From Nakamurella alba (GTDB lineage Bacteria; Actinomycetota; Actinomycetes; Mycobacteriales; Nakamurellaceae): a stretch of 64,000 nt of DNA. Positions 650 through 22,958 of the stretch are shown piece by piece. The notes beneath the pieces were generated by a model. It saw only the letters and a list, made by a program, of their open reading frames with translations. It made no database searches and was not told the DNA's origin. The DNA lies in NCBI RefSeq assembly GCF_009707545.1, contig NZ_WLYK01000011.1, positions 1 through 64,000 of the forward strand, read 5' to 3'. Position numbers and translations under genes: made by a program. The first letter of the stretch is position 1; each line of letters begins with the position of its first letter.

Positions 650-705
650 GGTGAACCGTTTCAGCGGCCTGCTGGTTGACGATCTTCGCGACACTGTTGT
701 ACGGT
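650..705 (+). promoter_or_regulatory. Promoter of module 1 with upstream palindromic operator
   Basis: A near palindrome GGTGAACCGTTTCAGC (650-665) sits 10 bp upstream of a -35 box TTGACG (676-681). An 18-bp spacer leads to the -10 box TACGGT (700-705). The riboswitch begins about 6 bp later, so transcription probably starts at its first base. The same operator-promoter arrangement is seen in modules 2 and 3. Its position just upstream of -35 suits an activator site, but this is inferred. Confidence 0.6.
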
Positions 706-710
706 CCTGC

Positions 711-824
711 TGTCAAGAGTTCCAGCGACAAGCCCTGGCTTGCTGGACGGCAACCCTCACGCTGTGGCGGGGTGCCCCAGGTGAGGACACGGCCCGGACG
801 GATCGTCAGGGTCAGCACAGCCGA
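711..824 (+). promoter_or_regulatory. SAM-IV riboswitch 1 (orphan copy)
   Basis: The core GAGTTCCAGCGACAAGCC ... GGCAACCCTC ... GGGGTGCCCCAGG matches the SAM-IV aptamer layout known from actinobacteria. A short closing helix is possible between TGTC near 711 and GACA near 786. A 45-base stretch (from about 717) is identical to riboswitch 2 at 2119. The closing stem and 3' part are weaker than in the other copies: the GGCAAGC-like motif reads GTCAGCAC. SAM binding would be expected to turn expression off. No gene follows in this orientation. Confidence 0.75.
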
Positions 825-839
825 TCGAGGGGATCCGAC

Positions 840-938
840 GTGACGCACCAAGTACCGCTGGGCATCTGGGCCTGGTGTGCTGTCCGCCGCCGTCATGTCG
901 ATCTCGGCCGCGTGCACAGCGCCGGCTGTCGGTCCTGA
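840..938 (+). CDS. Cysteine-motif leader peptide 1
   Basis: A 32-residue ORF starts at GTG behind a GAGGGG ribosome site with about 7 bases of spacing. It ends in R-R-R-H-V-D-L-G-R-V-H-S-A-G-C-R-S. The RRHxDL...C ending is shared with four other leaders in this window and with a class of leader peptides known upstream of actinobacterial sulfur genes. There, translation of cysteine codons is thought to sense Cys-tRNA supply. A second Cys lies at residue 13. It is probably a regulatory peptide rather than a functional protein. Confidence 0.7.
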   Translation: MTHQVPLGIWAWCAVRRRHVDLGRVHSAGCRS

Positions 939-944
939 CCCTGC

Positions 945-962
945 CGGGCCCTTTGTGGCCCG
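945..962 (+). terminator. Short hairpin after leader peptide 1
   Basis: CGGGCC, loop CTTTGT, GGCCCG forms a perfect 6-bp stem six bases after the leader stop codon. There is no clear T-tract. It is placed where an attenuator or terminator stem would be expected. From 963 to 1207 I see no convincing gene on either strand. Confidence 0.4.
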
Positions 963-1207
963 AAGCGTTCCGGCCCGTGCGGCATCACGACGGAGCGACG
1001 CCGTCCTGGTGACCTTCCGAACTTGATATCCCCTGTTCTGCATCGGATGTCAGGCCATCCTGCGCACCCGACGGAACACGTCCGGCATCGACTTCGAGTG
1101 CGATGCCGGTCTGCGGCCGCCCAGGGCACAGGCGGGACGGTGGCCGCACGGCGCCGCGGGATCGGCGGAACCCGCGGCGCCCCCGTCCGGCGATCTCCGG
1201 CGGACAC

Positions 1208-2045
1208 CTACCGGAGACCCCGGAGCAAGGGCAGCAGATCACTTCCCTGACGGGTGATCTCGTCACGGTACGGCGTGTCCGAGAGGATGAAGGTGCTGAT
1301 GCCGAGATCGGCGTAGCGGCACAGGGCGCCGGCCACGTCGTCGGGCGACCCGACGAGCCACGAGGCGCCCGCGCCGATGCCGCCGGCCAGCGCGGGCGCG
1401 GTGTACAGGTACTCGTCCACCACCTCCGAGCGGTCGGCGAGCCGGCGGAGCCGCTGCTGGCCAACGGCTTCCGCCCACCCCCCGCTCGAGGTCGGCGACA
1501 GCGCCATCGCCGCCACACGCGCCCGGGCCACCGCCCAGGCCTCCTCCGTCGTGTCGCGCACGACCGTGGTCACGCGCAGGCCGAACGCCAACGGCCGGTG
1601 CACCCGTCCGACATCGACCTGCAGCGAGCGAAGTGTGTCGATCCTGTCCGCCACGGCGGCCAGTGGTTCGCCCCAGAACAACTGCACGTCGGCCTCCGCG
1701 GCGGCGACCCGCGTCGTCCTTGCCGGAGATCACGTTGACCCGGACACGCCCGCCGGTCAGTTCGTCCAACGTGGCTGCGGCAGAGGCGAAGTGAGCCGGT
1801 TGCCAGTATCCCGGTCGGGTGGCGATCAGCGGTTCGAAGGTATCGGTGCGGGCGGCGAGCGCGGTTGCGACCGTGAAGGTGTCCGGGCGCCCCCACCCGG
1901 TCCCGATCAGTGCACCCTGCCAACCGGACCGCTCCACCGCACGTGCCTGGTCGGTCAACACCTCCGTGCTGTTGTGGTCGGCCGACACCGGATCACCGCG
2001 GTGGCCCGGCCGGGCGATGGCCATCGGTGTGGTTCGGCTCGCAAT
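1208..2045 (-). pseudogene. ssuD: Decayed SsuD-like alkanesulfonate monooxygenase
   Basis: Two reading frames on the minus strand together resemble an SsuD-type FMNH2-dependent alkanesulfonate monooxygenase, normally about 360-380 residues. One frame carries the N-side part (E-R-S-G-W-Q-G-A-L-I-G-T-G-W, then R-P-G-Y-W-Q-P-A-H-F-A and G-R-V-R-V-N-V-I-S-G-K-D-D). A second frame, joined near 1700, carries the C-side part (A-D-V-Q-L-F-W-G-E-P-L-A-A-V-A-D to the stop at 1208). About 80 residues that should lie between S-G-K-D-D and the W-G-E-P block are missing, and so is the N-terminus. The gene is therefore frameshifted, internally deleted and 5'-truncated at about 2045, right where the duplicated operator-promoter of module 2 begins. 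It should be non-functional. Before decay it would have released sulfite from alkanesulfonates, in keeping with the neighbouring sulfur genes. Confidence 0.75.
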
Positions 2046-2053
2046 CCCTTGCA

Positions 2054-2111
2054 GGTGAACCGTTTCACCACACGTTGGTACTTGCGCGCCGGAGAAGTAC
2101 TGATATACGGT
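2054..2111 (+). promoter_or_regulatory. Promoter of module 2 with palindromic operator
   Basis: GGTGAACCGTTTCACC (2054-2069) is a palindrome with GGTGAA/TTCACC half-sites separated by four bases. It is followed after 12 bp by a -35 box TTGCGC (2082-2087), an 18-bp spacer and the -10 box TACGGT (2106-2111). The riboswitch starts 8 bp further on. This is the cleanest copy of the operator in the window. Confidence 0.6.
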
Positions 2112-2118
2112 CGATTTC

Positions 2119-2238
2119 GGTCACGAGTTCCAGCGACAAGCCCTGGCTTGCTGGACGGCAACCCTCACGGATGTGGCGGGGTGCTCCAGGTGACGACCGG
2201 GTGCGGACCGGAAGAGCCGGTCCGTGCAAGCACAGCCG
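2119..2238 (+). promoter_or_regulatory. SAM-IV riboswitch 2
   Basis: The element has the SAM-IV core (GAGTTCCAGCGACAAGCC, GGCAACCCTC, GGGGTGCTCCAGG). A GGTC/GACC closing helix joins 2119 to about 2197. A strong hairpin GGACCGG-AAGAG-CCGGTCC follows, then the GTGCAAGCAC tail typical of SAM-IV. SAM binding is expected to reduce expression of the downstream transport and monooxygenase operon. Confidence 0.85.
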
Positions 2239-2273
2239 AGAGCGCCGTACGCCGCGAACCGTCAGGAGTCCTC

Positions 2274-2375
2274 GTGGACGAGCACCGTGCCGCCGCAGGG
2301 CATGTCGCCGGCACCTGGTCCCGCCGCCGCCACATCGACCTGGGACGGACGCAGAGTGCCTTCTGTTGTCGCTGA
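2274..2375 (+). CDS. Cysteine-motif leader peptide 2
   Basis: A 33-residue ORF starts at GTG behind AGGAG with 5 bases of spacing. It ends in S-R-R-R-H-I-D-L-G-R-T-Q-S-A-F-C-C-R, with tandem TGT-TGT cysteine codons just before the stop. The motif is shared with the other four leaders. Tandem Cys codons suit ribosome stalling under cysteine shortage. It lies between the riboswitch and a long hairpin that precedes the first structural ORF. Confidence 0.75.
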   Translation: MDEHRAAAGHVAGTWSRRRHIDLGRTQSAFCCR

Positions 2376-2477: not shown

Positions 2478-2807
2478 ATGCTGCACAGCAGATCCTTTCA
2501 CGACAGTTTTCCCTACGGCAGTTCCACTGACACGCCCCTGCGCGAGGCGAACCGCCGGTTGACCGGCAGTTCCGGCTACCGACGGCTGCGGCGCCGCTAC
2601 GGGGAAGCGGCATCGCGGTCCCGCAGCGAGTCCGAGAGAGCGCACTGGGTGGACCGCGACCGGCAGCTGCGCGCCTGGGCCGAGCGGGTCGATGCCGGAG
2701 GTCCGGATCTGTCCGGCACTTCGGACGAGGTCCGGCGGTTGCTCGAGTTCGAGCACCGACAGGTGTCCCAGGAGATCGCGCTGCAGATCGCCCGCGACCT
2801 GCACTGA
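2478..2807 (+). CDS. Small charged protein of unknown function
   Basis: A 109-residue protein starts at ATG behind GGAG with 6 bases of spacing. I do not recognise a family. It is rich in Arg, Glu and Ser and looks largely helical, for example the segment from residue 57 with E-R-A-H-W-V-D-R-D-R-Q-L-R-A-W-A-E-R. There is no signal peptide, membrane segment or cysteine. It is the first structural ORF after SAM-IV module 2 and the first candidate target of that control. A strong hairpin follows it, separating it from the ABC transporter genes. It could be a small regulator or a partner protein of the pathway, but that is only a guess from position. Confidence 0.55.
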   Translation: MLHSRSFHDSFPYGSSTDTPLREANRRLTGSSGYRRLRRRYGEAASRSRSESERAHWVDRDRQLRAWAERVDAGGPDLSGTSDEVRRLLEFEHRQVSQEIALQIARDLH

Positions 2808-2832
2808 ACCGGCACACCGCACCACCGCTGCA

Positions 2833-2867
2833 CCGCAGGTGGCGCCCTGCCCGGGCGCTACCTGCGG
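2833..2867 (+). terminator. Strong hairpin between the small ORF and the transporter operon
   Basis: Arms CCGCAGGTGGCGCCC (2833-2847) and GGGCGCTACCTGCGG (2853-2867) pair at 14 of 15 positions around a TGCCC loop. The sequence after it is pyrimidine-rich (CTCTCCTCC) without a pure T run. It may be a terminator or a partial terminator or processing site that lowers transporter expression relative to the first ORF. Confidence 0.55.
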
Positions 2868-2930
2868 GCCGCTCTCCTCCTATCCGAAAGTTGCTGCTGT
2901 GCATCCGATCCCAAGTCTGTTGGCGTTGCC

Positions 2931-3926
2931 ATGACCCGCTACCTGGTGACCAGACTCCTGCAGGCACTGTTCGTGCTGTGGGCCGCCTACACCGTCACCT
3001 TCGTCATCCTTTTCCTGCTGCCGAGTGATCCGGTCGAGATCCGGCTCGCCGCGGGCGGCGACGGGGGAGTGTCGTCCCAGGACGAGCTCGACGCGCTGCG
3101 GGCCGAGTACGGACTGGACCAACCCCTGTGGGTGCAGTACTTCTCGCTGCTGTCCCGGTTCGTTCGGGGTGATCTCGGCAACTCGATCGCCACCGGCACG
3201 CCGGTGAGCGAGTCCCTGCGCCAGGCATTGCCGCAGACCCTGGCCCTGGCCGGGGCGGCCCTGCTGCTGGCCCTGCTGCTCGGGGTGGGTGTGGCCATGC
3301 TGGCCTCCCGGCTGCGTACCCGGTGGCTGCAGCAGGCGCTGCTGTCGCTGCCCTCGCTCGGTGTCGCCGTCCCGACGTTCTGGTCCGGACTGCTGCTGCT
3401 GCAATTGTTCTCCTTCCGACTGGGCTGGTTCCCCTCGCTGGGCAACAAGGGCATCGAGAGCATGGTGCTGCCGGCGATCGCCCTCGCCCTGCCGAATGCG
3501 GCCTACGTCGCACAGGTGCTGGCCCGGAGCCTGCGTCACGCGGTGCGCCAGCCGTACGTCGACACCGCGCGGGCCCGGGGCGCCTCCACCTCCAGGGTGC
3601 TGTTCCGGCACGCGCTGCCCAATGCCGTCATCCCGGCACTCACCATGGTGGGGATCTGCGCCGGCAACCTGCTCGGCGGCGCCGTGGTGGTCGAGACCGT
3701 CTTCTCCCGTGTCGGGATCGGCAAGTTGACCCAGACCGCGGTCGCCGCCCAGGACACCCCGGTGGTGCAGACCCTGGTCGTGCTGGCCGCCGCCATCTTC
3801 GTGGTGGTCAATCTGCTGGTCGACCTGCTCTACCCGCTCATCGACCCACGGATCGCCGTCCGCCGTTCCCGTCGGCGACCTGCGGTGACCACGACCCCGG
3901 AGAAGAAGGAGACCGCAGATGTCTAG
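2931..3926 (+). CDS. ABC transporter permease, DppB/OppB family
   Basis: A 331-residue inner-membrane permease of the peptide/opine/nickel (DppB-OppB-GsiC) family. It begins with the typical R-Y-L-V-T-R-L-L-Q-A-L-F-V-L helix. The periplasmic loop has D-E-L-D-A-L-R-A-E-Y-G-L-D-Q-P-L-W-V-Q-Y. Six membrane segments are visible. The EAA loop that docks the ATPase is seen as Y-V-D-T-A-R-A-R-G-A-S near residue 205. It overlaps the next permease gene by 8 bases, which suggests translational coupling. With the following three genes it forms a complete importer. Sitting behind a SAM-IV riboswitch and before three flavin monooxygenases, it probably imports an organosulfur compound, perhaps a modified cysteine or short peptide. 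The substrate is inferred, not shown. Confidence 0.88.
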   Translation: MTRYLVTRLLQALFVLWAAYTVTFVILFLLPSDPVEIRLAAGGDGGVSSQDELDALRAEYGLDQPLWVQYFSLLSRFVRGDLGNSIATGTPVSESLRQALPQTLALAGAALLLALLLGVGVAMLASRLRTRWLQQALLSLPSLGVAVPTFWSGLLLLQLFSFRLGWFPSLGNKGIESMVLPAIALALPNAAYVAQVLARSLRHAVRQPYVDTARARGASTSRVLFRHALPNAVIPALTMVGICAGNLLGGAVVVETVFSRVGIGKLTQTAVAAQDTPVVQTLVVLAAAIFVVVNLLVDLLYPLIDPRIAVRRSRRRPAVTTTPEKKETADV

Positions 3927-4818
3927 CGTGCTGGCCGTCGAGACGGTCGATCTCGTCGACGGTTCGGCCGTCGGAACCGCACCGCCACGCCGCACCCGGC
4001 CGCGGCGCAGCCGCCGGTGGACGGCGCGGGTGGGGGTCTGGCTGTCCTGGGCCGTGATTGCGCTGGTGGTGGGGTGGGCTTTCCTGCCGGGGGTGTTCGC
4101 CCATCAGGATCCGCTGGCCGGCAATCCCGTCGACAAGTTGCAGGCCCCGTCCGGTGCGCACTGGTTCGGCACCGACTACATCGGCCGCGACCTGTTCGCC
4201 CGGGTGGTGCACGGCTCGGCGCTGTCCTTGCAGGCCACTGTGCTGGCCGTGGCCATCGGCCTGGTGTTCGGCTCGGCCATCGGGCTCTGGGCCGGGTGGG
4301 CCGGCGGCCGCACCGACAGCCTGCTGATGCGGGTCGTCGATGTGCTGCTGGCCGTTCCCGGGCTGCTGCTCTCGTTGACGGTGGTGGTCGCGCTGGGCTT
4401 CGGCACCATCAACGTGGCGATCGCCGTCGGAGTCGGGATCGTCGCCTCGTTCGCCCGCCTGATGCGGTCCGAGGTGCTGCGCATCCGGTCGAGCGAGTTC
4501 GTCGAAGCTGCAGGCGCTCTCGGCCGCAAGTGGTACGGCGTGCTCGGCGAGCACGTGCTGCCGAACGCCGCCGGCCCGGTGCTCGCACTGGCGACCCTGG
4601 AGTTCGGCACCGCGATCCTGTCGATCTCGTCGTTGAGCTTCCTCGGTTTCGGCGCGCAACCACCGGCCCCGGAGTGGGGGCAGCTCGTCTCCGAGGGACG
4701 CAACTACCTGGCCGGGGCCTGGTGGCTGACCACCCTGCCCGGTCTGGTGGTGGTCGCCGTCGTGCTAGCCGCCAACCGCATCGGTCGCGACCTGGAGCGC
4801 CGCGGGGTGCACCGATGA
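3919..4818 (+). CDS. ABC transporter permease, DppC/OppC family
   Basis: A 299-residue partner permease of the DppC-OppC-GsiD family. The N-terminal 35 residues are Arg-rich and cytoplasmic, followed by a first membrane helix. The family motif H-W-F-G-T-D-Y-I-G-R-D-L-F-A-R-V-V-H-G lies near residues 77-95, as expected for DppC. The EAA loop appears as E-F-V-E-A-A-G-A-L-G near residue 194. The C-terminus carries the usual L-S-F-L-G-F-G-A-Q-P-P-A-P-E-W-G segment. The start overlaps the previous gene by 8 bases, and the stop overlaps the ATPase start as ATGA, so the four transporter genes are tightly coupled. Confidence 0.88.
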   Translation: MSSVLAVETVDLVDGSAVGTAPPRRTRPRRSRRWTARVGVWLSWAVIALVVGWAFLPGVFAHQDPLAGNPVDKLQAPSGAHWFGTDYIGRDLFARVVHGSALSLQATVLAVAIGLVFGSAIGLWAGWAGGRTDSLLMRVVDVLLAVPGLLLSLTVVVALGFGTINVAIAVGVGIVASFARLMRSEVLRIRSSEFVEAAGALGRKWYGVLGEHVLPNAAGPVLALATLEFGTAILSISSLSFLGFGAQPPAPEWGQLVSEGRNYLAGAWWLTTLPGLVVVAVVLAANRIGRDLERRGVHR

Positions 4819-6494
4819 GCCGCCCGGTGCTCGAGCTCAAGGACCTGCGGGTCAGCTACGGGGAGGACGACAACAGCGTCGACGCGGTGCGCGGCGTCGA
4901 CATCTCGGTCGCGCCGGGCGAGTTCGTCGCCGTCGTGGGCGAATCGGGATCGGGCAAGTCGACCACCGCGCACGCGGTGCTCGGACTGCTGCCCGAGACC
5001 GGGCGGGTGACCGGCGGGCGGATCGTCCTGGGTGACGACGACATCACCTCGGCCGGCGAACGCCGGCTGCGGGACATCCGTGGCAGCCGGGTGGGGCTGG
5101 TGCCGCAGGATCCGTTGGTCTCGCTGAATCCGGTGATGCGTGTCGGCGCACAGGTGGCGGAGACGTTGCGGCTGCACACCGGGGCCGGTCGGCGGGCGGC
5201 GGCGGCACGCGCGGTCGAGCTGCTGGCCGAGGTCGGACTTCCGGATCCGGCGTCCCGGGCGCAGCAGTACCCGCACGAGCTCTCCGGCGGGATGCGCCAG
5301 CGCGTGCTGCTGGCCAATGCCTGGGCCTGCCTGCCCGAGCTGGTGATCGCCGACGAGCCGACCAGCGCGCTCGACGTCACTGTGCAGCGAAGGGTTCTCG
5401 ACCTGCTCGATGCGATGCGCCGGGAACACGGGACGGCCGTCCTGTTCATCACCCACGACCTCGGCGTCGCCGCGGAGCGGGCCGACCGGATCGTGGTGAT
5501 GCGGCACGGCCGGGTCGTGGAGACCGGTACCCCGGCAGCGCTGCTCGCCGCGCCCGCCGACGAATACACCCGGACGCTGCTCGCGGCGTCGCCGGGTATC
5601 AACCCGACCGTGCTCGCCCCCTCCGCGCGGGTGGTGGAGCGGGCGGCGGGCGACCTGGGCAAGAAGTCCGATCCGCCGGAGATCCTGCTGGCCGGCGAGG
5701 GTCTGACCAAGTCGTTCCCGCTACCTGGTTCACGTCGCGCGCAGCTGGTGGCCGTCGACGGCGTCGACGTCGAGCTGCGTGCCGGTCGGACGACGGCACT
5801 CGTCGGGGAGTCCGGATCCGGGAAGTCGACGACGGCGCGCCTGCTCGGGCGTCTGGCGGACCCGACTGCCGGCACCGTCCGGTACCGCGGCGAGGACATC
5901 ACCCGGGTCCGGGGCGAGAAGTTGCGGGCCTGGCGACGCCAGGTGCAGTTCGTGTACCAGAGCCCCTATGCTTCACTGGATCCCCGGCTCGCGGTGGGCC
6001 GGATCATCTCGGAACCGTTGCGTGCCTTCGAGATCGGCTCGGCCACCAGCCGGGCCGCCGACGTCCGCGATCTGCTCGAGCAGGTCGCTCTGCCCGCGTC
6101 CGTCGCCGAGCGGCTCCCTGCCGCCCTCTCCGGCGGGCAGCGCCAGCGGGTGGCGATCGCCAGAGCACTCGCCCTGCGACCCGAGCTGCTGATCCTGGAC
6201 GAGCCGGTGTCGGCACTGGACGCCTCCATCCAGGCCCAGATCCTCCAGCTGCTGGTGGATCTCCGGGCCGCACACGGGCTCACGTACCTGTTCATCTCGC
6301 ACGATCTCTCGGTCGTCCGGCAACTCGCCGACCAGGTCGCGGTCATGCGGGAGGGGCGCATCGTCGAGCAGGGGCCGACGGAGCAGCTCTTCTCCGCCCC
6401 GCAGCACAGCTACACCCAGGACCTGCTGGCCGCCATCCCGCGCGGCCGGATCTCCACCATCCCTCACCAGCTCACCCGAGAAGGACTCCAGTGA
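4815..6494 (+). CDS. Fused double ATP-binding subunit (DppD-DppF type) of the ABC importer
   Basis: A 559-residue protein with two complete ABC ATPase domains, powering the two permeases encoded just upstream. Domain 1 has Walker A G-E-S-G-S-G-K-S-T at residues 42-50, the signature L-S-G-G-M-R-Q-R near 156 and Walker B L-V-I-A-D-E-P near 176. Domain 2 has Walker A near 331, L-S-G-G-Q-R-Q-R near 438 and L-L-I-L-D-E-P near 458. Both keep a switch histidine (F-I-T-H-D-L and F-I-S-H-D-L). Such DppD-DppF fusions are common in actinobacteria. The ATG start overlaps the previous stop (ATGA). The frame is open far upstream, but homology begins only at this ATG. Confidence 0.9.
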   Translation: MSRPVLELKDLRVSYGEDDNSVDAVRGVDISVAPGEFVAVVGESGSGKSTTAHAVLGLLPETGRVTGGRIVLGDDDITSAGERRLRDIRGSRVGLVPQDPLVSLNPVMRVGAQVAETLRLHTGAGRRAAAARAVELLAEVGLPDPASRAQQYPHELSGGMRQRVLLANAWACLPELVIADEPTSALDVTVQRRVLDLLDAMRREHGTAVLFITHDLGVAAERADRIVVMRHGRVVETGTPAALLAAPADEYTRTLLAASPGINPTVLAPSARVVERAAGDLGKKSDPPEILLAGEGLTKSFPLPGSRRAQLVAVDGVDVELRAGRTTALVGESGSGKSTTARLLGRLADPTAGTVRYRGEDITRVRGEKLRAWRRQVQFVYQSPYASLDPRLAVGRIISEPLRAFEIGSATSRAADVRDLLEQVALPASVAERLPAALSGGQRQRVAIARALALRPELLILDEPVSALDASIQAQILQLLVDLRAAHGLTYLFISHDLSVVRQLADQVAVMREGRIVEQGPTEQLFSAPQHSYTQDLLAAIPRGRISTIPHQLTREGLQ

Positions 6495-8158
6495 ACCCCA
6501 CGCACCACCGACGGCGGCAGCTCCGATCCGTCGGCACGATCACCGCAGGCGCAGCCCTGGCCGCCGTGCTCGCCGCCTGCGGCAGCACCGCCGGTGCCAC
6601 CGCCCAGAACGCCGGTGCCGGAACGAGTTCCGGCTCGTCGGCGGCCGCCGGGCAACCGGTCTCCGGTGGGACGCTGACCCTCGCCCTCGACGGCGATCCG
6701 ACCTGCATCGACCCTGCCCAGACGTCGCTGACCAACACGCTCTCGCTCGGCGCCCAGTTCACCGACACCCTCGTGGACCAGGACTTCGAGACCGGGGAGA
6801 TCGTGCCCGCGCTCGCCGAGAAGTGGGAGATCAGCGACGACGCCACGGAGTTCACCTTCCATCTGCGAGACGGCGTGACCTTCAGTGACGGCACCCCGCT
6901 GGACGCCGCCGCGGTCAAGGCGAACTTCGACGGCATCATCGATCTCGGCGCCGCGTCGTTCCTCGGCTCCAGCTACCTGGCGGACTATGTCGGCACCGAT
7001 GTGGTCGACGACAGCACCGCGAAGGTCACCTTCAAGACCCCGAACGTGCCGTTCCTGCAGGCCGCGGCCACCGCGACGCTGGGCATCCTGTCGCCCGCCA
7101 CCAACAAGCTGACCGCCGACGAGCGGTGCCAGGGCGAGCTCGTCGGGTCCGGACCGTTCGTGCTGTCGAAGTACGATCTGACCTCCCAGGTGGTGCTGAC
7201 CCGGCGCGCCGGCTACGCCTGGCCGTCCGCGGCCGCCGAGCACCAGGGCGAGGCCTATGTCGAGACCGTCGTACTGCCGATCGTCAAGGAGACCGGTGTG
7301 CGCGCCGGCGGACTGCAGTCCGCCGAGTTCGACGGCATCTTCCAGCCCGCGGTGCAGGACCAGGACGCGCTCGAGCAGGCCGGGTTCACCCTGACCTCCC
7401 GTGCGAACCCAGGGAACGTGCAGTCGTTGTTCGCCAACACTTTCCGCCCGCTCGTCGCCGAAGAGGCTGTGCGCCAGGCATTCCAGAAGGCGATCGATCG
7501 GGACGAGTTCAACGCCACCCTTTTCAACGCGCGGTACGCCGTTCCCTCCAGCGTCCTCTCGCCGACCACTCCCGGGTACACCGACCTGAGTGCCGACCTG
7601 GTGTACGACCCCGAGGGTGCCAAGGCCCTGCTGGACGGAGCCGGCTGGACGGTCGGTGCCGACGGCATCCGGGAGAAGGACGGGACGAAGCTGGTGCTCA
7701 AGCTGCTGTCCAGCGAGGCCACCAAGTCTGCGGCCGAGCTGACCCAGAACCAGCTCAAGGAGGTCGGCATCGGGGTCGAGATCGAGATCCCGGAGTCCTC
7801 GCAGTCGTTCAAGGTCCGCTCGGCCGGCGACTGGGACTACACGTTCTCCGGCCTGACCCGGGCGGATCCGGACACACTGCGCCGTGACTTCTGGTCCGGC
7901 GGGCAGCCGAACAGCGCGGCCCACCTGACCGAGAGCCCGCTGGACGACAAGATCCTCGCGCAGAAGGCCGAGGTGGACACCGAGAAGCGTTGGGCGATCG
8001 TGGCGGAGATCCAGAAGGAGATCATCACCCAGGGCTACGACATCCCCTACGGCTCGCAGCTGCAGATCTACGCCACTCGGGACGGGGTTCAGGGGCTACG
8101 GCTCGACGCGTCCTCGCGGCTGCGGCTCTACGACACCTGGGTCCAGGCCTCCTCCTGA
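6491..8158 (+). CDS. Substrate-binding lipoprotein, SBP family 5
   Basis: A 555-residue extracellular solute-binding lipoprotein of the peptide/nickel SBP_bac_5 family. The GTG start overlaps the ATPase stop (GTGA). An Arg-rich n-region and hydrophobic core end in the lipobox A-V-L-A-A-C with Cys30 as the lipidated residue. The linker is Ala/Gly/Ser-rich. The mature protein shows the family pattern L-A-L-D-G-D-P-T, then L-A-E-K-W-E-I-S-D-D-A-T-E-F-T-F-H-L-R-D-G-V-T-F-S-D-G-T-P near residues 103-135. It would present ligand to the permeases encoded upstream. As with the whole operon, an organosulfur ligand is likely from context only. Confidence 0.88.
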   Translation: MNPTHHRRRQLRSVGTITAGAALAAVLAACGSTAGATAQNAGAGTSSGSSAAAGQPVSGGTLTLALDGDPTCIDPAQTSLTNTLSLGAQFTDTLVDQDFETGEIVPALAEKWEISDDATEFTFHLRDGVTFSDGTPLDAAAVKANFDGIIDLGAASFLGSSYLADYVGTDVVDDSTAKVTFKTPNVPFLQAAATATLGILSPATNKLTADERCQGELVGSGPFVLSKYDLTSQVVLTRRAGYAWPSAAAEHQGEAYVETVVLPIVKETGVRAGGLQSAEFDGIFQPAVQDQDALEQAGFTLTSRANPGNVQSLFANTFRPLVAEEAVRQAFQKAIDRDEFNATLFNARYAVPSSVLSPTTPGYTDLSADLVYDPEGAKALLDGAGWTVGADGIREKDGTKLVLKLLSSEATKSAAELTQNQLKEVGIGVEIEIPESSQSFKVRSAGDWDYTFSGLTRADPDTLRRDFWSGGQPNSAAHLTESPLDDKILAQKAEVDTEKRWAIVAEIQKEIITQGYDIPYGSQLQIYATRDGVQGLRLDASSRLRLYDTWVQASS

Positions 8159-15475: not shown

Positions 15476-15490
15476 CGTCAGTGGTCCTTG

Positions 15491-16684
15491 TCAGGCGGTG
15501 GCGTACCGGTTGGGCACGGAGGTGGGCAGGCCGATCAGCCCGCGCAGATTGGTGTCGGGGTAGGTCTCGCGGTGCTGCCCGCGGCGACGCAGCTCGGGCA
15601 CCAGATCGTCCGCGATCCGCGGGACGTCATCGGTGGCGACGCCGGGTCGAAGTCGGAATCCGTGATATCCCAGTGTGTTCCAGCTCTGCAACCGGTCGGC
15701 CAGGTCGGCGGCCGACCCGGCGAACACCAGCGTCTCGGTCTCCAGTGGTACGCGGCCGTCCAGGCGCCGCAGCCGGTCCGCACCCGACTCGTCCGGACCG
15801 TCGAGGAACACCACTACGTCCGCCCAGACCTGCAGCGGCTCGGGCGACTGCCGGGCCTGCACGACCGCGTCGCCGACCTCGGCGAGGATCCCGCGGGCGC
15901 GCTCGTCGTCGGTCGGGGTGACGAACACCAGGTCCGCGTGCGCCGCGGCCAGCAGGTAGGGCACGCGCCGGTGCGCCAGCAGGCTGATCACCGGCTGGCC
16001 CTGCGGCGACCGGGGGGTGATCGACGGTCCCCGGACGCTGAACCCGCTGCCCACGAAATCGATGTGGTGCACCTTCTCGCGGTCGATGAAGCGGCGGTGC
16101 TCGACATCGCGGATCTCGGCGTCGTCCTCCCAGCTGTCCCACAACCGGCGGACCACGTCGATGGCCTCGCCGGCCTCGTCGAACAGGTCGACCAGGAAGG
16201 CGGGCAGCTCGCCGGGCTCCAGTGCCTCCAGGTCCAGCGCCGGGATCTCCCGACGGCCGAACTGGGCGGCCTCACGGCCGAAACCGCCGGTGCGCACCTG
16301 CCATCCCGCCCGGCCCCGGGAGGTGTGGTCGAGGGTGGCGAGGGCCTTGGAGACGTGGAACGGCTCGGTGTGCGTGGTGGTCACCACCGGCACCAGGCCG
16401 ATGTGCCGGGTGACCGGCGCGACGCGGGCCGCGATGAGCAGGGCGTCCAGCCGGCCGCGCACCACGTCGGTCCGGTCGTCCTCCCGGTCGACCCGGTCGT
16501 ACTGCAGGGTCAGTGAGTCCTCGATGGTGACCAGATCCAGCGTTCCGCGTTCCGCGGTGGAGATGAGATCCGTCCAGTAGCCGGCCGAGAAAAGTTCTGC
16601 CGGACGTGATGTCGGCTCACGCCACGCGGCGGGATGCCAACCGGCGCCGTCGAGGGCGAGGCCGAGGTGGATATGGGTGGACAT
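15491..16684 (-). CDS. Luciferase-like flavin monooxygenase, short paralogue
   Basis: A 397-residue LLM-class enzyme. I chose the ATG at 16684 because GGAGG lies 4 bases upstream and similarity to the paralogue at 21174 begins there (G-L-A-L-D-G-A-G-W-H-P-A-A-W-R against S-V-A-L-T-G-A-G-A-H-P-G-A-W-R). Shared marks include A-E-R-G-T-L-D-L-V-T-I-E-D, T-E-P-F-H-V-S-K-A-L-A-T-L-D, S-W-E-D-D-A-E-I-R-D-V, and S-V-R-G-P-S-I-T-P-R-S-P-Q-G-Q-P-V. It is the first structural gene after SAM-IV module 3 and its leader peptide. With the long LLM downstream it may form a two-step oxidative pair. An open frame continues upstream to 16924 but runs through the leader region and is not used. Confidence 0.85.
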   Translation of the reverse strand: MSTHIHLGLALDGAGWHPAAWREPTSRPAELFSAGYWTDLISTAERGTLDLVTIEDSLTLQYDRVDREDDRTDVVRGRLDALLIAARVAPVTRHIGLVPVVTTTHTEPFHVSKALATLDHTSRGRAGWQVRTGGFGREAAQFGRREIPALDLEALEPGELPAFLVDLFDEAGEAIDVVRRLWDSWEDDAEIRDVEHRRFIDREKVHHIDFVGSGFSVRGPSITPRSPQGQPVISLLAHRRVPYLLAAAHADLVFVTPTDDERARGILAEVGDAVVQARQSPEPLQVWADVVVFLDGPDESGADRLRRLDGRVPLETETLVFAGSAADLADRLQSWNTLGYHGFRLRPGVATDDVPRIADDLVPELRRRGQHRETYPDTNLRGLIGLPTSVPNRYATA

Positions 16685-16851: not shown

Positions 16852-16871
16852 GGTTCGGGTCCTTCCGTCGA

Positions 16872-16984
16872 CGTCGCTTGCCCGGCATCGCTCCGACGCC
16901 GTGCCAGGTGTGATCCCGGGGCACCCCATCGAGTCGAAGGGTTGCCGTCCAGCCTGCCGGGCCAGTGGCTGGAACTCGTCACCT
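16872..16984 (-). promoter_or_regulatory. SAM-IV riboswitch 3
   Basis: On the minus strand the order AGGTGACGAGTTCCAGCC, GGACGGCAACCCTTCG, GATGGGGTGCCCCGGG, ATCACACCT, then GATGCCGGGCAAGCG follows the SAM-IV consensus. The AGGTG/CACCT closing stem is present. The element begins 7 bp after its -10 box. It leads the operon 16684-12235. Confidence 0.85.
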
Positions 16985-16990: not shown

Positions 16991-17045
16991 ACAGTAGGAC
17001 CTGTACCGGGCCCGTGCAAGCATCCGAGGAGTGAATCGGTTCACC
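16991..17045 (-). promoter_or_regulatory. Promoter of module 3 with palindromic operator
   Basis: On the minus strand GGTGAACCGATTCACT (17045-17030) lies 10 bp upstream of the -35 box TTGCAC (17019-17014). A 17-bp spacer leads to the -10 box TACTGT (16996-16991). Operator spacing is the same as in module 1. The region also serves as the upstream region of the divergent M20 gene. Confidence 0.6.
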
Positions 17046-19816: not shown

Positions 19817-21177
19817 AGGCTCGCGCCCTCGGACCGCTGCGGCACCGAGATGCCCAGGTGGTCTCGGAGGGTCGTGCCCTCGTACTCGGTCCGGTAGACG
19901 CCACGTTCCTGCAGCAGCGGCACGACGGTGTCCGCGAACTCGGCGAGCCCGCCCGGCACCAGGTGCGGGACCAGGATGAACCCGTCGGAGGCATCGGCCT
20001 GGACGTAGGAGTCGATGGTCTCGGCCACCGACTCCGGGGTGCCGATGAAGTTCTGCCGGGAGCTGGTCTCGATGACCGTCTCCCGCAACGACAGGCCTTT
20101 CGCCTCGGCGAGCGCCCGCCACTGCCGGGAGACCTCGATCGGATCCCGGTTCATCCGCACGCTCGCCCGGCCCTTGGCCAGGGTGTTCTCGCCCGGCACC
20201 GGGTCGAACTCGGGCAGCGGTCCGTCCGGGTCGCGGTCGCTGAGGTCGACGTTCCACAGCTGCTCGGCCAGCCGCAGTGCGCTCTGCCCGCTGACCTGCT
20301 GGCTCCGCACGTGCCGTGCGAGATCCTGCGCCTCGCTCTCGGTCTCGCCGATGGTGAAGGTGGCCGCCGGCAGCACCAGCAGGTCCGCGTGGGCGCGGCC
20401 GTACTTCGCCAGGCGGCCCTTGACGTCGGAGTAGAAGGCCTGCCCGGCCTCGAGGGTGCCGTGCCGGGAGAAGATGGCATCGGCGGAGGCGGCGGCGAAC
20501 TCGCGGCCCGCATCGGAGTCACCGGCCTGGAAGATCACCGGGCGGCCCTGCGGGGAGCGTGGGACGTCGAAGTGTCCGTCGATGTCGAAGAAGTCGTCGT
20601 GGATCGAGAACTCACCCGCCCGGTCGTCGGCCAGGAACCGGCCGGCCGCTGCGTCGGCCACCACGGCGCCGTCCGGCCACGAGTCGAACAGGCGCTGGGT
20701 GGCGTGCAGGAACGACTCCGCCCGCGCGTAGCGGTCACCTTCCGCGAGATAGCCACCACGGCGGAAGTTCTCGCCGGTGAAGGCATCCCAGGAGGTCACC
20801 ACGTTCCACGCGGCGCGACCGTCGGAGAGATGATCGAGAGTGGCGAACTGCCGTGCCACCTCGAACGGTTCGTTGAAGGTGGAGTTGATGGTGCCGGTCA
20901 GGCCGATCCGCTCGGTGACCGCGGCCAGCGCGGACAGGATGGTGAAGGTGTCCGGCCGGCCCACCACGTCCAGGTCGTAGATCTTCCCGTTCTGCTCCCG
21001 CAGCCGCAGACCCTCGGCCAGGAAGAGGAAGTCGAACTTGGCCTGTTCGGCGATCTGGGCGAACCTGACGAAGGAGTCGAACTCGATCTGGCTGCCCGAC
21101 TGGGGATCGCTCCAGACCGTCGTGTTGTTGACTCCGGGGAAGTGCGCGGCCAGGTGGACCTGCTTGCGGGGGGTCAT
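19807..21177 (-). CDS. FMN-dependent monooxygenase, NtaA/SnaA/DszA family, long paralogue
   Basis: A 456-residue LLM enzyme. The ATG at 21177 overlaps the stop of the upstream gene as ATGA; the frame is open further upstream but homology starts here. It carries Q-A-K-F-D-F-L-F-L-A-E-G, D-V-V-G-R-P-D-T-F-T-I-L-S-A-L-A-A-V-T, I-N-S-T-F-N-E-P-F-E-V-A-R-Q-F-A-T-L-D-H-L-S, and G-R-A-A-W-N-V-V-T-S. It is closely similar along its length to the protein of 14123-15475, which holds the same position in a parallel operon. Likely a YtnJ/YxeK-like monooxygenase for an organosulfur substrate, using FMNH2 from a reductase. Confidence 0.87.
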   Translation of the reverse strand: MTPRKQVHLAAHFPGVNNTTVWSDPQSGSQIEFDSFVRFAQIAEQAKFDFLFLAEGLRLREQNGKIYDLDVVGRPDTFTILSALAAVTERIGLTGTINSTFNEPFEVARQFATLDHLSDGRAAWNVVTSWDAFTGENFRRGGYLAEGDRYARAESFLHATQRLFDSWPDGAVVADAAAGRFLADDRAGEFSIHDDFFDIDGHFDVPRSPQGRPVIFQAGDSDAGREFAAASADAIFSRHGTLEAGQAFYSDVKGRLAKYGRAHADLLVLPAATFTIGETESEAQDLARHVRSQQVSGQSALRLAEQLWNVDLSDRDPDGPLPEFDPVPGENTLAKGRASVRMNRDPIEVSRQWRALAEAKGLSLRETVIETSSRQNFIGTPESVAETIDSYVQADASDGFILVPHLVPGGLAEFADTVVPLLQERGVYRTEYEGTTLRDHLGISVPQRSEGASLVS

Positions 21178-22331
21178 GCGAGGGCTCCGATGTCCGAAGA
21201 GACTGCTGCGTAACGGTTGGGGGCGACCGGGAGGTCGAGGCGGTCGCGGAGCGACTCGCTGAGGTACTCGGTCTCGCGCAGGCCGAGTCGGCGCAGTTCC
21301 GGTACCAGGGCGTGCACGATCACCTCGAGATCGGTCGGCAGGACGCCCGGCCACAGCCGGACGCCGTCGTAACCGGCCTGCTGCCGGTGCACCAGCAGGG
21401 CGGCGAGATCCGTTGGAGAGCCGGAGAACACGGCCGTACCGGTCGCGGCGGATGCGCCGTGCCGGTCGTCCAGCTCGGCGAGTCGGTCGGCGCCGGTGGT
21501 GTCCCGGTCGTCGAGGAACACCACCAGATCGGTGAGCCGGCGCTGCGCGGCGCCGCCGGTGGCGGCACGCAACCCGTCCAGTTCGGCGAGCGCCGTGGCG
21601 GCATCCGGGTCCGCGAGCGGATCGGTGAGAATCGCCACATCGGCCTGTGCGGCGGCGACACCGATGGCACCGTCGCCGGCTTCGCGGCCGGCAGCGACCA
21701 CCACCACCGGTTGGCCCTGCGGCGGCCGCGGCGTGATGGAGGGTCCGCGCACGGAGAAGTACGGCCCGGCGAAGTCGACGTAGTGCAGCTTGTCGATGTC
21801 CACGAACCGCCCGGTCGCCACGTCCCGGATCTCGGCGTCGTCCTCCCAGCTGTCCCAGAGCCGGCGCACCACCTCGACCCAGTCGGCGGCCTCCGCCCAG
21901 GCGTCGGCGGGAGGCAGCGGCGCGCGCCGGCCGACCAGGGCGTAGTCCTGGTCGGCGATCGAGATCTGCGGCAGCACACCGGCTCTGCCGCTGGAGACGT
22001 AGTCCAGGGTGGCGATCGCCTTGGACAGGTGGAACGGCTCGGTCTGCGAGGTCACGGCGGCGGGCACGATGCCGATGCGGCCGGTGGACGGAGCGATCCG
22101 GGCCGCCAGCAGTGTGGCGTCCAGGCGCAGTCCGACCTCGGACGGCCGCTGCGGATCGCGGCCGAAACCGTCCTCCAGCGTGACGAAGTCGAGGTGCGCA
22201 CGCTCCGCCGACAGCACCAGATCGGTCCAGTAGCGGGCCGAGGTCAGCTCACCGGGGCGGGCAGCGGGGGAGCGCCAGGCTCCGGGGTGGGCGCCGGCAC
22301 CGGTCAGCGCGACGGACAGGAAGAACGTCAT
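21174..22331 (-). CDS. Luciferase-like flavin monooxygenase, short paralogue
   Basis: A 385-residue LLM-class enzyme and the first gene after SAM-IV module 4. It aligns with the 397-residue protein of 15491-16684: S-W-E-D-D-A-E-I-R-D-V, Y-F-S-V-R-G-P-S-I-T-P-R-P-P-Q-G-Q-P-V and T-E-P-F-H-L-S-K-A-I-A-T-L-D are shared. The central region is shorter and the flavin-site P-R-S-P-Q has become P-R-P-P-Q. Its stop overlaps the start of the long LLM gene. The pair repeats the gene order of the module 3 operon, so one cassette probably arose by duplication of the other. Confidence 0.85.
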   Translation of the reverse strand: MTFFLSVALTGAGAHPGAWRSPAARPGELTSARYWTDLVLSAERAHLDFVTLEDGFGRDPQRPSEVGLRLDATLLAARIAPSTGRIGIVPAAVTSQTEPFHLSKAIATLDYVSSGRAGVLPQISIADQDYALVGRRAPLPPADAWAEAADWVEVVRRLWDSWEDDAEIRDVATGRFVDIDKLHYVDFAGPYFSVRGPSITPRPPQGQPVVVVAAGREAGDGAIGVAAAQADVAILTDPLADPDAATALAELDGLRAATGGAAQRRLTDLVVFLDDRDTTGADRLAELDDRHGASAATGTAVFSGSPTDLAALLVHRQQAGYDGVRLWPGVLPTDLEVIVHALVPELRRLGLRETEYLSESLRDRLDLPVAPNRYAAVSSDIGALA

Positions 22332-22352
22332 GGAGAGGCTTTCTCATCGGGG

Positions 22353-22406
22353 CGCTGCATCCGGGTGCGCGTGAACCCGGAAGCAGCGGAGGGAGTGGCC
22401 GGATGC
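22353..22406 (-). terminator. Switchable hairpin between leader 4 and the monooxygenase operon
   Basis: On the minus strand a two-part hairpin forms from CGCTGC/GCAGCG (outer) and CCGGGT/ACCCGG (inner), spanning 22388-22353. Just after the leader stop lies GCATCCGG (22406-22399), which is perfectly complementary over 8 bp to CCGGATGC (22364-22357) in the 3' arm of that hairpin. The two pairings exclude each other, as in terminator/antiterminator control by a translated leader. No T-tract is seen. Confidence 0.55.
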
Positions 22407-22408
22407 GG

Positions 22409-22495
22409 TCAGGCCGGACAGAGTGCGCTGTGCACTCGCTGCAGGTCGATGTGCCGACGGCTCACCAGGAGCATCGGGGTCACGGAAGTCCGCAC
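22409..22495 (-). CDS. Cysteine-motif leader peptide 4
   Basis: A 28-residue ORF starts at GTG (22495) behind GGAGGAG with about 8 bases of spacing. It ends V-S-R-R-H-I-D-L-Q-R-V-H-S-A-L-C-P-A. It contains one cysteine, three codons before the stop, and the first strand of the alternative pairing begins two bases after the stop. A stalled ribosome at that Cys codon would cover this strand. Confidence 0.75.
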   Translation of the reverse strand: MRTSVTPMLLVSRRHIDLQRVHSALCPA

Positions 22496-22529
22496 GGCGT
22501 GCTCCTCCTCGTGGTGGGCGTCGCCACCT

Positions 22530-22637
22530 GCTGGTTGCCCCGGCACGGTGCCGGGACCTGGTGTTCACCTGGGGCACCCCACAGCATGCGAGGGTTGCCG
22601 GTCAGCACGCCAGGGCCTGTCGCTGACACTCATCACC
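22530..22637 (-). promoter_or_regulatory. SAM-IV riboswitch 4
   Basis: On the minus strand GGTGATGAGTGTCAGCG, GGCAACCCTCG, GTGGGGTGCCCCAGG and AACACC follow the SAM-IV order. A CCCGGCA-CCG-TGCCGGG hairpin and GGCAACCAGC tail follow. The closing stem GGTG/CACC is present. It leads the monooxygenase pair 22331-19807. Confidence 0.85.
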
Positions 22638-22644
22638 TGCGGGC

Positions 22645-22672
22645 AGGGTACACAGGTCGGCCGAGGACCGGG
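22645..22672 (-). promoter_or_regulatory. Probable promoter of module 4
   Basis: A -10 box TACCCT preceded by TGTG (minus strand, 22650-22645) lies 8 bp before the riboswitch. No good -35 box is seen 17-18 bp upstream, and the palindrome of modules 1-3 is absent. An activator or alternative sigma factor may be needed. Confidence 0.4.
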
Positions 22673-22685
22673 GCCGGGAGCCTGC

Positions 22686-22714
22686 TTGACCCTTGTCGGG
22701 CAGCTGGTTACCGT
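22686..22714 (+). promoter_or_regulatory. Promoter of module 5
   Basis: A -35 box TTGACC (22686-22691), a 17-bp spacer and a -10 box TACCGT (22709-22714) lie 7 bp before the riboswitch. It is back to back with the module 4 promoter; the two -10 boxes are about 60 bp apart. Confidence 0.65.
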
Positions 22715-22720
22715 GAGGGA

Positions 22721-22832
22721 AGGTCATGAGTTCCAGCGCGAAGCTCCGGCTCGCTGGGCGGCAACCCTCCTCCGCGGTGGGGTGCTCCGGATGAGGACCT
22801 GGCCCTCCCGATCGGGACGGCAAGTGCGGAGT
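22721..22832 (+). promoter_or_regulatory. SAM-IV riboswitch 5
   Basis: AGGTCATGAGTTCCAGCG, GGCGGCAACCCTCC, CGGTGGGGTGCTCCGG and ATGAGGACCT follow the SAM-IV order. The AGGTC/GACCT closing stem is good, and a TCCCGATCGGGA stem and CGGCAAGTGCGG tail follow. This copy is nearest to the actinobacterial consensus. It leads the reductase-acetyltransferase and FAD-protein genes. Confidence 0.87.
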
Positions 22833-22874
22833 CACGTCGCAGCGACGGCTCCCGGGCAGGGAAGGACGACCGAC

Positions 22875-22958
22875 GTGCACGCACCCTCGGGTAATCGTCC
22901 CTTCCTGCGTCGGCACATCGATCTGCTGCGCACCAGCAGCGATCTCTGTCGTTCCTGA
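22875..22958 (+). CDS. Cysteine-motif leader peptide 5
   Basis: A 27-residue ORF starts at GTG behind AAGGA with about 9 bases of spacing. It ends F-L-R-R-H-I-D-L-L-R-T-S-S-D-L-C-R-S, with one cysteine three codons from the end. From 22959 to 23067 there is a GC-rich untranslated stretch in which I see no clean attenuator stem. Confidence 0.75.
   Translation: MHAPSGNRPFLRRHIDLLRTSSDLCRS

What the first reader, a model, noticed from the sequence alone, without database searches (positions are those of the whole stretch)
650..22958. Five composite SAM-IV riboswitch + cysteine-leader-peptide modules in 22 kb
Five regions share one layout: promoter, SAM-IV aptamer starting about +1, a GTG-started leader with good ribosome site ending [LRS]RR[HE][IV]DL...C, then usually a stem before the first gene. 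The sequence shows both sensors on every transcript. SAM-IV riboswitches and RRHIDL-type Cys leaders are known separately in actinobacteria; their systematic pairing in one island suggests a two-input gate, with expression only when both SAM and cysteine (Cys-tRNA) are low.
Basis: partly seen in the sequence, partly recalled or inferred. Interest (0 to 1): 0.85.

Follow-up and report, generated by a model that had tools for sequence, protein, structure and literature searches.

The report
SAM riboswitch gating cysteine leader peptides
Sulfur-scavenging genes in this actinobacterium start with a double RNA sensor, a SAM riboswitch followed by a short leader peptide that probably senses cysteine, which may let them be expressed only when both SAM and cysteine run low.

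Summary
Confirmed: five SAM-IV aptamers (82-102 bits; cut-off 38), each followed by a GTG-started leader ending RR[HE][IV]DL-x7-C-x2-stop; the scan found no other such ORF end in 64 kb. The pairing is not confined to the island: 8 of 11 SAM-IV sites in this genome, 36 of 79 in its genus, and cases in five other families. A second type pairs SAM-IV with poly-Cys leaders before metY-like genes.

Composite leaders start a median 37.5 nt after the aptamer, close to where most genes without a leader start (83 of 135 within 75 nt). So the riboswitch most likely controls translation of the Cys sensor: a serial NOT-SAM AND NOT-Cys gate. Target genes differ markedly by regulator type, with overlap.

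New: the regulatory Cys codon is UGU in 123 of 124 distinct leaders (14% in nearby genes), at fixed distance from RRHxDL, suggesting a nascent-chain-assisted stall. There is no U-tract; SD sequestration and leader-downstream pairing were weak or absent. Gate logic is inferred; nothing was tested in cells. Module 1 lacks a visible target gene.

The parts
700..705 (+). module 1: -10 box TACGGT
   Evidence: TAnnnT starting 11 nt before the aptamer; across the set 185 of 213 aptamers have TAnnnT at -18..-8, control 2 of 213
711..823 (+). module 1: SAM-IV aptamer
   Evidence: 84.6 bits
840..938 (+). module 1: leader MTHQVPLGIWAWCAVRRRHVDLGRVHSAGCRS (GTG start); no target gene recognised on this strand
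   Evidence: (below NF042934 cut-off); orphan status
2106..2111 (+). module 2: -10 box
2119..2238 (+). module 2: SAM-IV aptamer
   Evidence: 91.5 bits
2274..2375 (+). module 2: leader MDEHRAAAGHVAGTWSRRRHIDLGRTQSAFCCR (GTG start)
2478..8158 (+). genes after module 2 (operon inferred): 109-aa ORF without family, two oligopeptide-type ABC permeases (2931-3926, 3919-4818), ABC ATPase ORF with two ABC domains ending 6494, family-5 solute-binding protein ORF ending 8158
16991..16996 (-). module 3: -10 box
16869..16983 (-). module 3: SAM-IV aptamer
   Evidence: 82.4 bits
16759..16851 (-). module 3: leader MSGSLEMTTLHAVLRREIDLCVTAGALCRS (GTG start)
12688..16684 (-). genes after module 3 (operon inferred): two luciferase-like monooxygenases (best NCBIfam match NtaA/DmoA type, the second over its cut-off) and a PALP enzyme (cystathionine beta-synthase/cysteine synthase-like, below cut-offs)
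22645..22650 (-). module 4: -10 box
22526..22637 (-). module 4: SAM-IV aptamer, divergent from module 5 with 84 nt between the two aptamer starts
   Evidence: 87.7 bits
22409..22495 (-). module 4: leader MRTSVTPMLLVSRRHIDLQRVHSALCPA (GTG start); the only one of the five over the NF042934 cut-off
21174..22331 (-). first gene of module 4: luciferase-like monooxygenase
22709..22714 (+). module 5: -10 box
22722..22832 (+). module 5: SAM-IV aptamer
   Evidence: 101.9 bits
22875..22958 (+). module 5: leader MHAPSGNRPFLRRHIDLLRTSSDLCRS (GTG start)
23068..24216 (+). first gene of module 5: SsuE-type NADPH-dependent FMN reductase joined to a GNAT domain

Best explanation
Each module is a two-step sulfur gate at the 5' end of a sulfur-scavenging transcript. 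Step 1 (inferred): the SAM-IV aptamer at +1 blocks translation initiation at the start codon about 40 nt downstream when SAM is bound; here that start codon is the leader's, not the gene's. Step 2 (inferred): if the leader is translated, the ribosome reads a UGU cysteine codon at a fixed distance from RRHxDL (in the five window leaders two codons before the stop); with scarce Cys-tRNA it stalls there, and the stalled ribosome lets the downstream gene be expressed, most likely by keeping Rho off the C-rich, G-poor RNA after the leader, or by freeing the gene's translation as reported for related mycobacterial leaders. With plentiful cysteine the ribosome leaves; with plentiful SAM it never loads; in both cases the gene stays off. 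Output = NOT SAM AND NOT Cys. Shown here: layout, family identities, start-codon position, codon invariance, difference in target genes. Not shown: SAM binding, stalling, Rho action, sign of the gate.
For: Position: composite leader start median 37.5 nt after the aptamer (38 of 50 within 30-47), poly-Cys leaders 45 (10 of 12 within 30-47), but the called first gene of composites 288 nt (n 45); genes without a leader, restricted to starts within 120 nt and an SD, 42 (n 87); without that restriction 83 of 135 start within 75 nt. Initiation mode: of 57 leaders without a detected SAM-IV module 29 have a -10 box 5-9 nt before an in-frame start (leaderless type), of 50 composite leaders 0; 41 of 50 composite leaders have an SD. 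Targets: composite RRHxDL first genes (47 scanned): luciferase-like monooxygenase 10, SBP_bac_3 8, BPD_transp_1 7, cysteine dioxygenase 2, and none with class-V aminotransferase, Cys_Met_Meta_PP, sulfite reductase or rhodanese; SAM-IV alone (79): class-V aminotransferase 56, Cys_Met_Meta_PP 14; leader alone (50): nitrite/sulfite reductase 16, rhodanese 12. Codon: Cys14 TGT 104 of 105, 123 of 124 distinct, against 59 of 423 Cys codons in the called genes and 0 of 15 at codon 10 of the composite leaders; one tRNA-Cys, anticodon GCA, among 45 tRNAs. Recurrence: families f1, f3, f5, f68, f69, f80 and a named Streptomyces (L328). Twelve poly-Cys leaders behind SAM-IV; 10 of 10 first genes scanned are Cys_Met_Meta_PP. 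No U-tract: longest T run 3 or less in 48 of 50; C 0.46, G 0.29 in the 80 nt after the stop.
Against: SD accessibility changed only weakly when the aptamer's pseudoknot strand was made unavailable (0.54 to 0.47, n 34; shuffled 0.52 to 0.50), so the expression platform was not demonstrated. Of 135 SAM-IV sites without a leader, 48 have a called gene start more than 120 nt away: some are miscalled, but in f5 and f2 the gap looks real, so the riboswitch does not always sit next to its gene. The C>G bias is not specific: the first 30 nt of directly controlled genes show it. Related mycobacterial leaders are cited as translation attenuation (passage in PMC13236596), against a Rho step; yet the first gene's SD is no more hidden than in shuffles (0.34 vs 0.31, n 35) and the leader's Cys-to-stop stretch shows no excess pairing with the next 150 nt (mean z -0.23). 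Of 210 usable aptamers 135 have no leader and 11 only a chance-level single-Cys ORF, and 43 of 77 genus leaders have no SAM-IV, so either sensor can work alone. Luciferase-like genes occur in all three target classes (10 of 47, 4 of 79, 5 of 50). Module 1 drives no visible gene. Sites were not sampled at random and are related by descent.
Confidence: 0.57

Rival explanations
1. Two sensors in parallel: SAM-IV acts on transcription or RNA decay on its own, and the leader separately controls the downstream gene; they share a transcript without the riboswitch controlling the leader's start.
For: Each sensor occurs alone in many loci; the SD-sequestration test was weak; 48 of 135 SAM-IV sites without a leader have their called gene start beyond 120 nt.
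Against: Leader start sits where most directly controlled start codons sit, and composite leaders show SD-type rather than leaderless-type starts. No U-tract was seen after the leader stop (the aptamer-leader gap was not scanned for one).
Confidence: 0.24
2. Inverted logic: leader translation represses the gene, so SAM binding (no leader translation) raises expression, as translation of the metE uORF lowers MetE in M. tuberculosis (abstract of PMC11260477).
For: Published precedent for a repressive uORF within a riboswitch leader.
Against: Would switch on sulfur scavenging when SAM is plentiful; leaders without SAM-IV often precede sulfur assimilation genes, and related Cys-rich leaders are described as cysteine-responsive attenuators (title and citing passages only).
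Confidence: 0.08
3. The pairing is a by-product of shared context: both elements are common near sulfur genes and come together by chance.
For: Both are frequent in the genus (79 SAM-IV; 86 leader hits at E 0.05 or better).
Against: 36 of 79 aptamers have a leader within 260 nt behind on the same strand and none ahead; clustered spacing.
Confidence: 0.03

Closest known systems
SAM-IV riboswitch (RF00634, clan SAM)
   Same: All five window aptamers pass the curated score over the full model length.
   Different: In most sites examined here without a leader the next start codon within about 75 nt is the gene's (83 of 135); in composites it is a leader peptide's.
NCBIfam NF042934 putative leader peptide (cis_reg_atten); NF042936 Ms4527A and NF042933 Ms5788A Cys-rich leader peptides
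   Same: Same RRHxDL...C pattern; all five match NF042934 at E 3e-8 to 0.009.
   Different: Four of five fall below its curated cut-off. Mycobacterial Cys attenuators are called leaderless in the title of Canestrari et al. 2020 (cited; the paper is not held), whereas composite leaders lie behind an aptamer and mostly have an SD.
ppe2 B12 riboswitch plus uPPE2 uORF of Mycobacterium tuberculosis (PMC11260477; abstract, outline and section 20 read)
   Same: A riboswitch whose first target is a short translated ORF on which the downstream gene depends.
   Different: Different ligand; uPPE2 overlaps the gene and a section title gives termination-reinitiation as the main route; I saw no second metabolite read by the uORF in the parts read.
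mgtA leader of Salmonella (Mg2+ sensing plus proline-rich mgtL) and similar combinations (recalled, no call)
   Same: RNA sensor and amino-acid-reading leader on one transcript.
   Different: Other signals and bacteria; order and mechanism differ.
Tandem riboswitch logic gates (e.g. PMC5912903, title seen in a reference list only)
   Same: Two inputs combined on one RNA.
   Different: Both inputs are aptamers there; here the second is a translating ribosome.
TnaC-type ribosome arrest (PMC10941005, abstract start in a listing) with Rho (suggested for mycobacterial cys leaders in PMC1262725, passages)
   Same: Conserved nascent residues at fixed distance from the control codon; C-rich RNA beyond.
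   Different: Sequence unrelated as recalled; arrest and ligand untested.

Membership tests
SAM-IV riboswitch RF00634 | Covariance score over the gathering threshold, full-length | tested here: met
   82.4-101.9 bits against 38, model 1-116 in all five
SAM-IV riboswitch RF00634 | Transcript position: 5' end behind a promoter, upstream of sulfur genes | tested here: met
   (-10 box starting at -11 or -13); genes; exception: module 1 has no visible gene
SAM-IV riboswitch RF00634 | Binds SAM and represses | not testable with these tools
   needs in-line probing and reporters
NCBIfam NF042934 cis_reg_atten leader peptide | Score over the curated cut-off (27 bits) | tested here: inconclusive
   met by 22495-22412 (32.9); the other four score 22.2, 21.1, 17.5, 15.6, below; a profile of only 19 positions
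NCBIfam NF042934 cis_reg_atten leader peptide | Short ORF ending RRHxDL...C close to the stop | tested here: met
   (module 3 has E for H)
Classical transcription attenuator (trpL type) | Intrinsic terminator with U-tract competing with a control-codon hairpin | tested here: not met
   no U-tract, no excess pairing of the Cys-stop stretch with downstream RNA over the set; module 2 alone has a hairpin over its stop codon, seen by eye
Cysteine-responsive attenuator leader | Response depends on Cys codons and cysteine supply | not testable with these tools
   codon bias is indirect support only
Ribosome arrest peptide with Rho antitermination (TnaC type) | Conserved nascent residues at fixed distance from the presumed arrest codon | tested here: met
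   R1, D5, C14 invariant in alignment A1 (39 rows, chosen by this motif); C at position 14 in 48 of 50 composite leaders
Ribosome arrest peptide with Rho antitermination (TnaC type) | Demonstrated arrest and Rho dependence | not testable with these tools
   needs toeprinting and Rho inhibition

The most novel reading that the evidence does not exclude
The RRHxDL leaders are a widespread actinobacterial ribosome-arrest family in which a conserved nascent segment in the exit tunnel primes the ribosome to pause on one obligatory wobble-read UGU codon, giving a sensitive cysteine read-out; and in several lineages a SAM-IV riboswitch has captured the leader's start codon, so that one metabolite sensor decides whether the other sensor is allowed to run (a serial RNA-then-ribosome logic gate).
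Probability: 0.35. Interest if true: 0.78.

Novelty: new variant of a known kind. Interest (0 to 1): 0.62.

Why it matters
It joins two well-known kinds of RNA control, an aptamer and an amino-acid-reading leader peptide, into what looks like a natural serial gate that recurs across actinobacterial families, and it predicts which sulfur genes listen to SAM, to cysteine, or to both. The near-absolute UGU rule gives a cheap test of how these leaders sense cysteine: Cys leaders of actinobacteria were predicted in 2005 without terminators (PMC1262725, passages) and are cited as translation attenuation in M. smegmatis (PMC13236596, passage). In the listings and passages of ten literature searches I saw no report of SAM-IV paired with a cysteine leader or of the UGU rule; most subscription papers, including the SAM-IV and Cys-attenuator originals, were not held, so this is not proof of absence.

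Tried and rejected
Trp-like attenuation: a hairpin over the module 2 stop codon (seen by eye) suggested competing pairings, but over 50 composite and 56 leader-only loci the Cys-to-stop stretch pairs with downstream RNA no better than with shuffles; rejected as the general mechanism. SD occlusion of the first gene: no signal. SD sequestration of the leader through the pseudoknot strand: weak, inconclusive. A small CAG-N6-CUG hairpin around codons 10-14, suggested by codon bias, shows no covariation beyond independence; rejected. C>G content as a Rho signature: a step at the leader stop but also at ordinary gene starts; kept as compatible only. Poly-Cys and single-Cys calls: 17 and 11 found, against 7 and 32 of 161 on the reverse complement and 1-2 and 9-14 in three shufflings, so single-Cys cases (e.g. 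L006, L102) are not counted and poly-Cys cases rest on their shared short form, position and, for 10 scanned, the metY-like gene. Hand changes: L050, L069, L122 set to no leader, L107 + moved to the RRHxDL class, L128 set apart as uncertain; L070 added. Naming the organism: the genome-contig scan did not list the window's own genome.

Sampling limits: aptamer loci were the best-scoring plus hand-picked lower matches; the order search listed only part of its matches, and not all listed ones were fetched. First genes were called automatically and some are wrong. Into the Pfam comparison went 47 of 51 composite, 79 of 135 no-leader (only starts 15-75 nt away with an SD) and 50 of 57 leader-only loci; of 52 leader-only loci with a called gene I dropped two next to SAM-IV (L080, L132). 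Four of the 57 'leader-only' loci have a GGCAACC motif within 400 nt upstream (L080, L132, L267, L296), so that set is not strictly free of SAM-IV.


Full report
WHAT IS THERE. The window holds five SAM-IV aptamers over the Rfam threshold and no other family over threshold. A six-frame scan of all 64 kb finds exactly five ORF ends of the RRHxDL...C type, one behind each aptamer. All five leaders start with GTG behind a purine-rich site, keep the same distances (R1 to C14, two residues, stop), use TGT for C14, and have a TAnnnT box starting 11 or 13 nt before the aptamer. NCBIfam knows the leader type: NF042934 matches all five and NF042936 or NF042933 also match, though only the leader at 22495-22412 passes a curated cut-off. 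Modules 4 and 5 are divergent, with 84 nt between their aptamer starts.

SURROUNDINGS. The modules lie in what looks like an organosulfur island: an oligopeptide-type ABC transporter with a binding protein, several luciferase-like monooxygenases (best NCBIfam match NtaA/DmoA type where scanned), a cystathionine-beta-synthase/cysteine-synthase-like enzyme and an SsuE-type FMN reductase. Module 1 is an exception: after its leader the same strand has no recognised gene until module 2; the opposite strand holds a luciferase-like gene split over two frames.

BEYOND THE WINDOW. The genome has 11 SAM-IV sites: 8 carry an RRHxDL-type leader, one a poly-Cys leader MSCRMCCRH before a Cys_Met_Meta_PP (metY-like) gene, one only an ORF with a single late Cys (chance level), one nothing. 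Three further leaders have no SAM-IV; they precede a rhodanese, a DUF4395 gene and a nitrite/sulfite reductase. In the family (17 genomes, one genus) 17 of 17 have SAM-IV, 79 sites; 36 of the 79 are followed by a leader hit at E 0.05 or better and none is preceded by one; of 77 leader hits at E 1e-3 or better, 34 have and 43 lack SAM-IV. SAM-IV occurs in 33 of 296 phylum genomes and 125 of 200 order genomes; the leader profile hits 14 of 197 phylum genomes, with 4 to 12 hits in each of seven genomes of family f5. I examined 214 aptamer stretches, 210 with at least 300 nt downstream: 51 RRHxDL-type and 12 poly-Cys leaders after hand curation, 135 without leader, 11 single-Cys, 1 uncertain. RRHxDL composites: f1 36, f3 8, f5 2, f68 2, f69 2, f80 1; poly-Cys: f1 10, f2 2. 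Divergent pairs like 4/5 recur: both composite in L080 and L107, one composite and one without leader in L106; SAM-IV pairs also in L179, L180 and the named L328.

WHY THE RIBOSWITCH PROBABLY ACTS ON THE LEADER. Aptamers sit at the transcript start: TAnnnT at -18..-8 in 185 of 213, control 2 of 213. The leader start lies a median 37.5 nt behind the aptamer and poly-Cys leaders 45, whereas the composite's called first gene is a median 288 nt away. Genes without a leader start at a median 42 nt when starts beyond 120 nt or without an SD are left out (n 87); of all 135 such sites 83 start within 75 nt, 4 at 76-120 and 48 beyond 120. Some of the 48 are miscalled internal starts, others (among 13 in f5 and 14 in f2) look like real gaps and may hide leaders I did not detect. 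Leaders without a SAM-IV module often look leaderless (29 of 57), composite leaders never (0 of 50), and 41 of 50 composite leaders have an SD. A leaderless start cannot be hidden by an upstream aptamer, so this is the change expected if the riboswitch came to control the leader (inference). The direct folding test of SD hiding was weak.

DIVISION OF LABOUR. First genes differ by regulator. SAM-IV alone (79 scanned): class-V aminotransferase 56, Cys_Met_Meta_PP 14, luciferase-like 4, rhodanese 2. Leader alone (50): nitrite/sulfite reductase 16, rhodanese 12, luciferase-like 5. SAM-IV plus RRHxDL (47): luciferase-like 10, SBP_bac_3 8, BPD_transp_1 7, other binding proteins, cysteine dioxygenase 2, and none with class-V aminotransferase, Cys_Met_Meta_PP, sulfite reductase or rhodanese. 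SAM-IV plus poly-Cys: Cys_Met_Meta_PP in 10 of 10 scanned, so metY-like genes are under SAM-IV alone in some genomes and under both sensors in others. Roughly, inorganic-sulfur genes listen to cysteine, methionine-side genes to SAM with or without cysteine, and organic-sulfur scavenging to both, with luciferase-like genes in all three classes. Among 80 named relatives of the module 4 monooxygenase, 22 have an RxHxDL-type leader in the 1.5 kb upstream; one (L328, Streptomyces sp. NBC_00620) is composite, one (L304) has a SAM-IV only on the opposite strand, and 20 showed no SAM-IV (nhmmer); Rfam on 20 of the 22 agreed (L328 sequence). So in this sample the cysteine leader is the commoner control of that gene and SAM-IV the rarer addition.

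THE UGU RULE. In 107 leaders motif codons vary (R1 in four codons, D5 GAC 69/GAT 38) but C14 is TGT in 104 of 105; with the named relatives 123 of 124 distinct leaders. The search motif asked for Cys there but not for a codon. The called genes use TGT for 59 of 423 Cys; in the composite leaders Cys10 is TGC 15 of 15 and Cys upstream of the motif TGT 6 of 23. The genome has one tRNA-Cys, anticodon GCA, among 45 tRNAs, so UGU is presumably read by wobble. Most Cys codons of the poly-Cys leaders are TGT too. Codons 10, 11 and 13 are biased as well (AGC/AGT 84 of 94 Ser at 11), which I could not explain by pairing. Conserved nascent residues at fixed distance plus one obligatory codon look more like an arrest peptide than a plain run of control codons. 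This is an inference; the leaders are related by descent, though synonymous sites elsewhere in the motif do vary.

THE LAST STEP. After the leader stop RNA is somewhat more structured than expected (100-nt windows mean z -0.95, leader-only -0.74; inside genes -0.39; upstream of promoters -0.06; leader stop to gene start mean -1.39, 10 of 35 below -2), has no U-tract (longest T run 3 or less in 48 of 50) and is C-rich and G-poor (0.46/0.29 against 0.38/0.33 in genes). That fits Rho-dependent termination shielded by a stalled ribosome, as suggested in 2005 for mycobacterial cys leaders (PMC1262725, passages), but the composition step also marks ordinary gene starts, and the M. smegmatis leaders are cited as translation attenuation (PMC13236596, passage). 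The Rho step is therefore the least certain part.

KNOWN OR NEW. SAM-IV and the leader family are known; riboswitch-plus-uORF control is known for B12 in M. tuberculosis (PMC11260477: abstract, outline, section 20). The specific SAM-IV plus Cys-leader pairing, the start-codon position, the target difference and the UGU rule were not seen in the listings and passages of ten literature searches; the two most relevant originals are not held. I file it as a new variant of a known kind.

Noticed in passing
window 1208-2024 (-): Luciferase-like monooxygenase split over two frames (ORFs 1263-2024 and 1208-1687), divergent from module 2; broken gene or sequence error.
   Followed up: partly
window 711-938 (+): Module 1 has promoter-like box, aptamer and leader but no visible target gene; it may transcribe toward module 2 and antisense to the broken gene.
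   Followed up: partly
L001, L055, L057, L061, L063, L066-L068, L072, L081, L099, L152: Second composite type: SAM-IV followed by 6- to 11-residue poly-Cys leaders (e.g. MSCRMCCRH, MCCRMCCRS), 9 of 12 GTG-started and TGT-rich; 10 of 10 first genes scanned are Cys_Met_Meta_PP.
   Followed up: yes
L125 (SAM-IV) versus L015 (leader): By eye, the same DUF4395-type gene is directly behind a SAM-IV aptamer in one genome of the genus and behind a leaderless-type Cys leader in this genome: a regulator swap.
   Followed up: no
G303 contig C26 88-107 kb; G304 contig C1 4.81-4.87 Mb: Two other genomes of the genus have similar islands with seven leader hits each (E 0.05 or better) and three SAM-IV sites each.
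   Followed up: no
f5 loci L026-L029, L032, L033, L035, L039, L043, L047, L048 and f2 loci such as L036, L042, L090: SAM-IV sites without a detected leader whose gene starts 130-300 nt away; the gap may hold an undetected leader or other element.
   Followed up: no
leaders, codons 10-13: Third-base C at codons 10 and 13 and AGC at codon 11 are strongly favoured without an explanation by pairing.
   Followed up: partly
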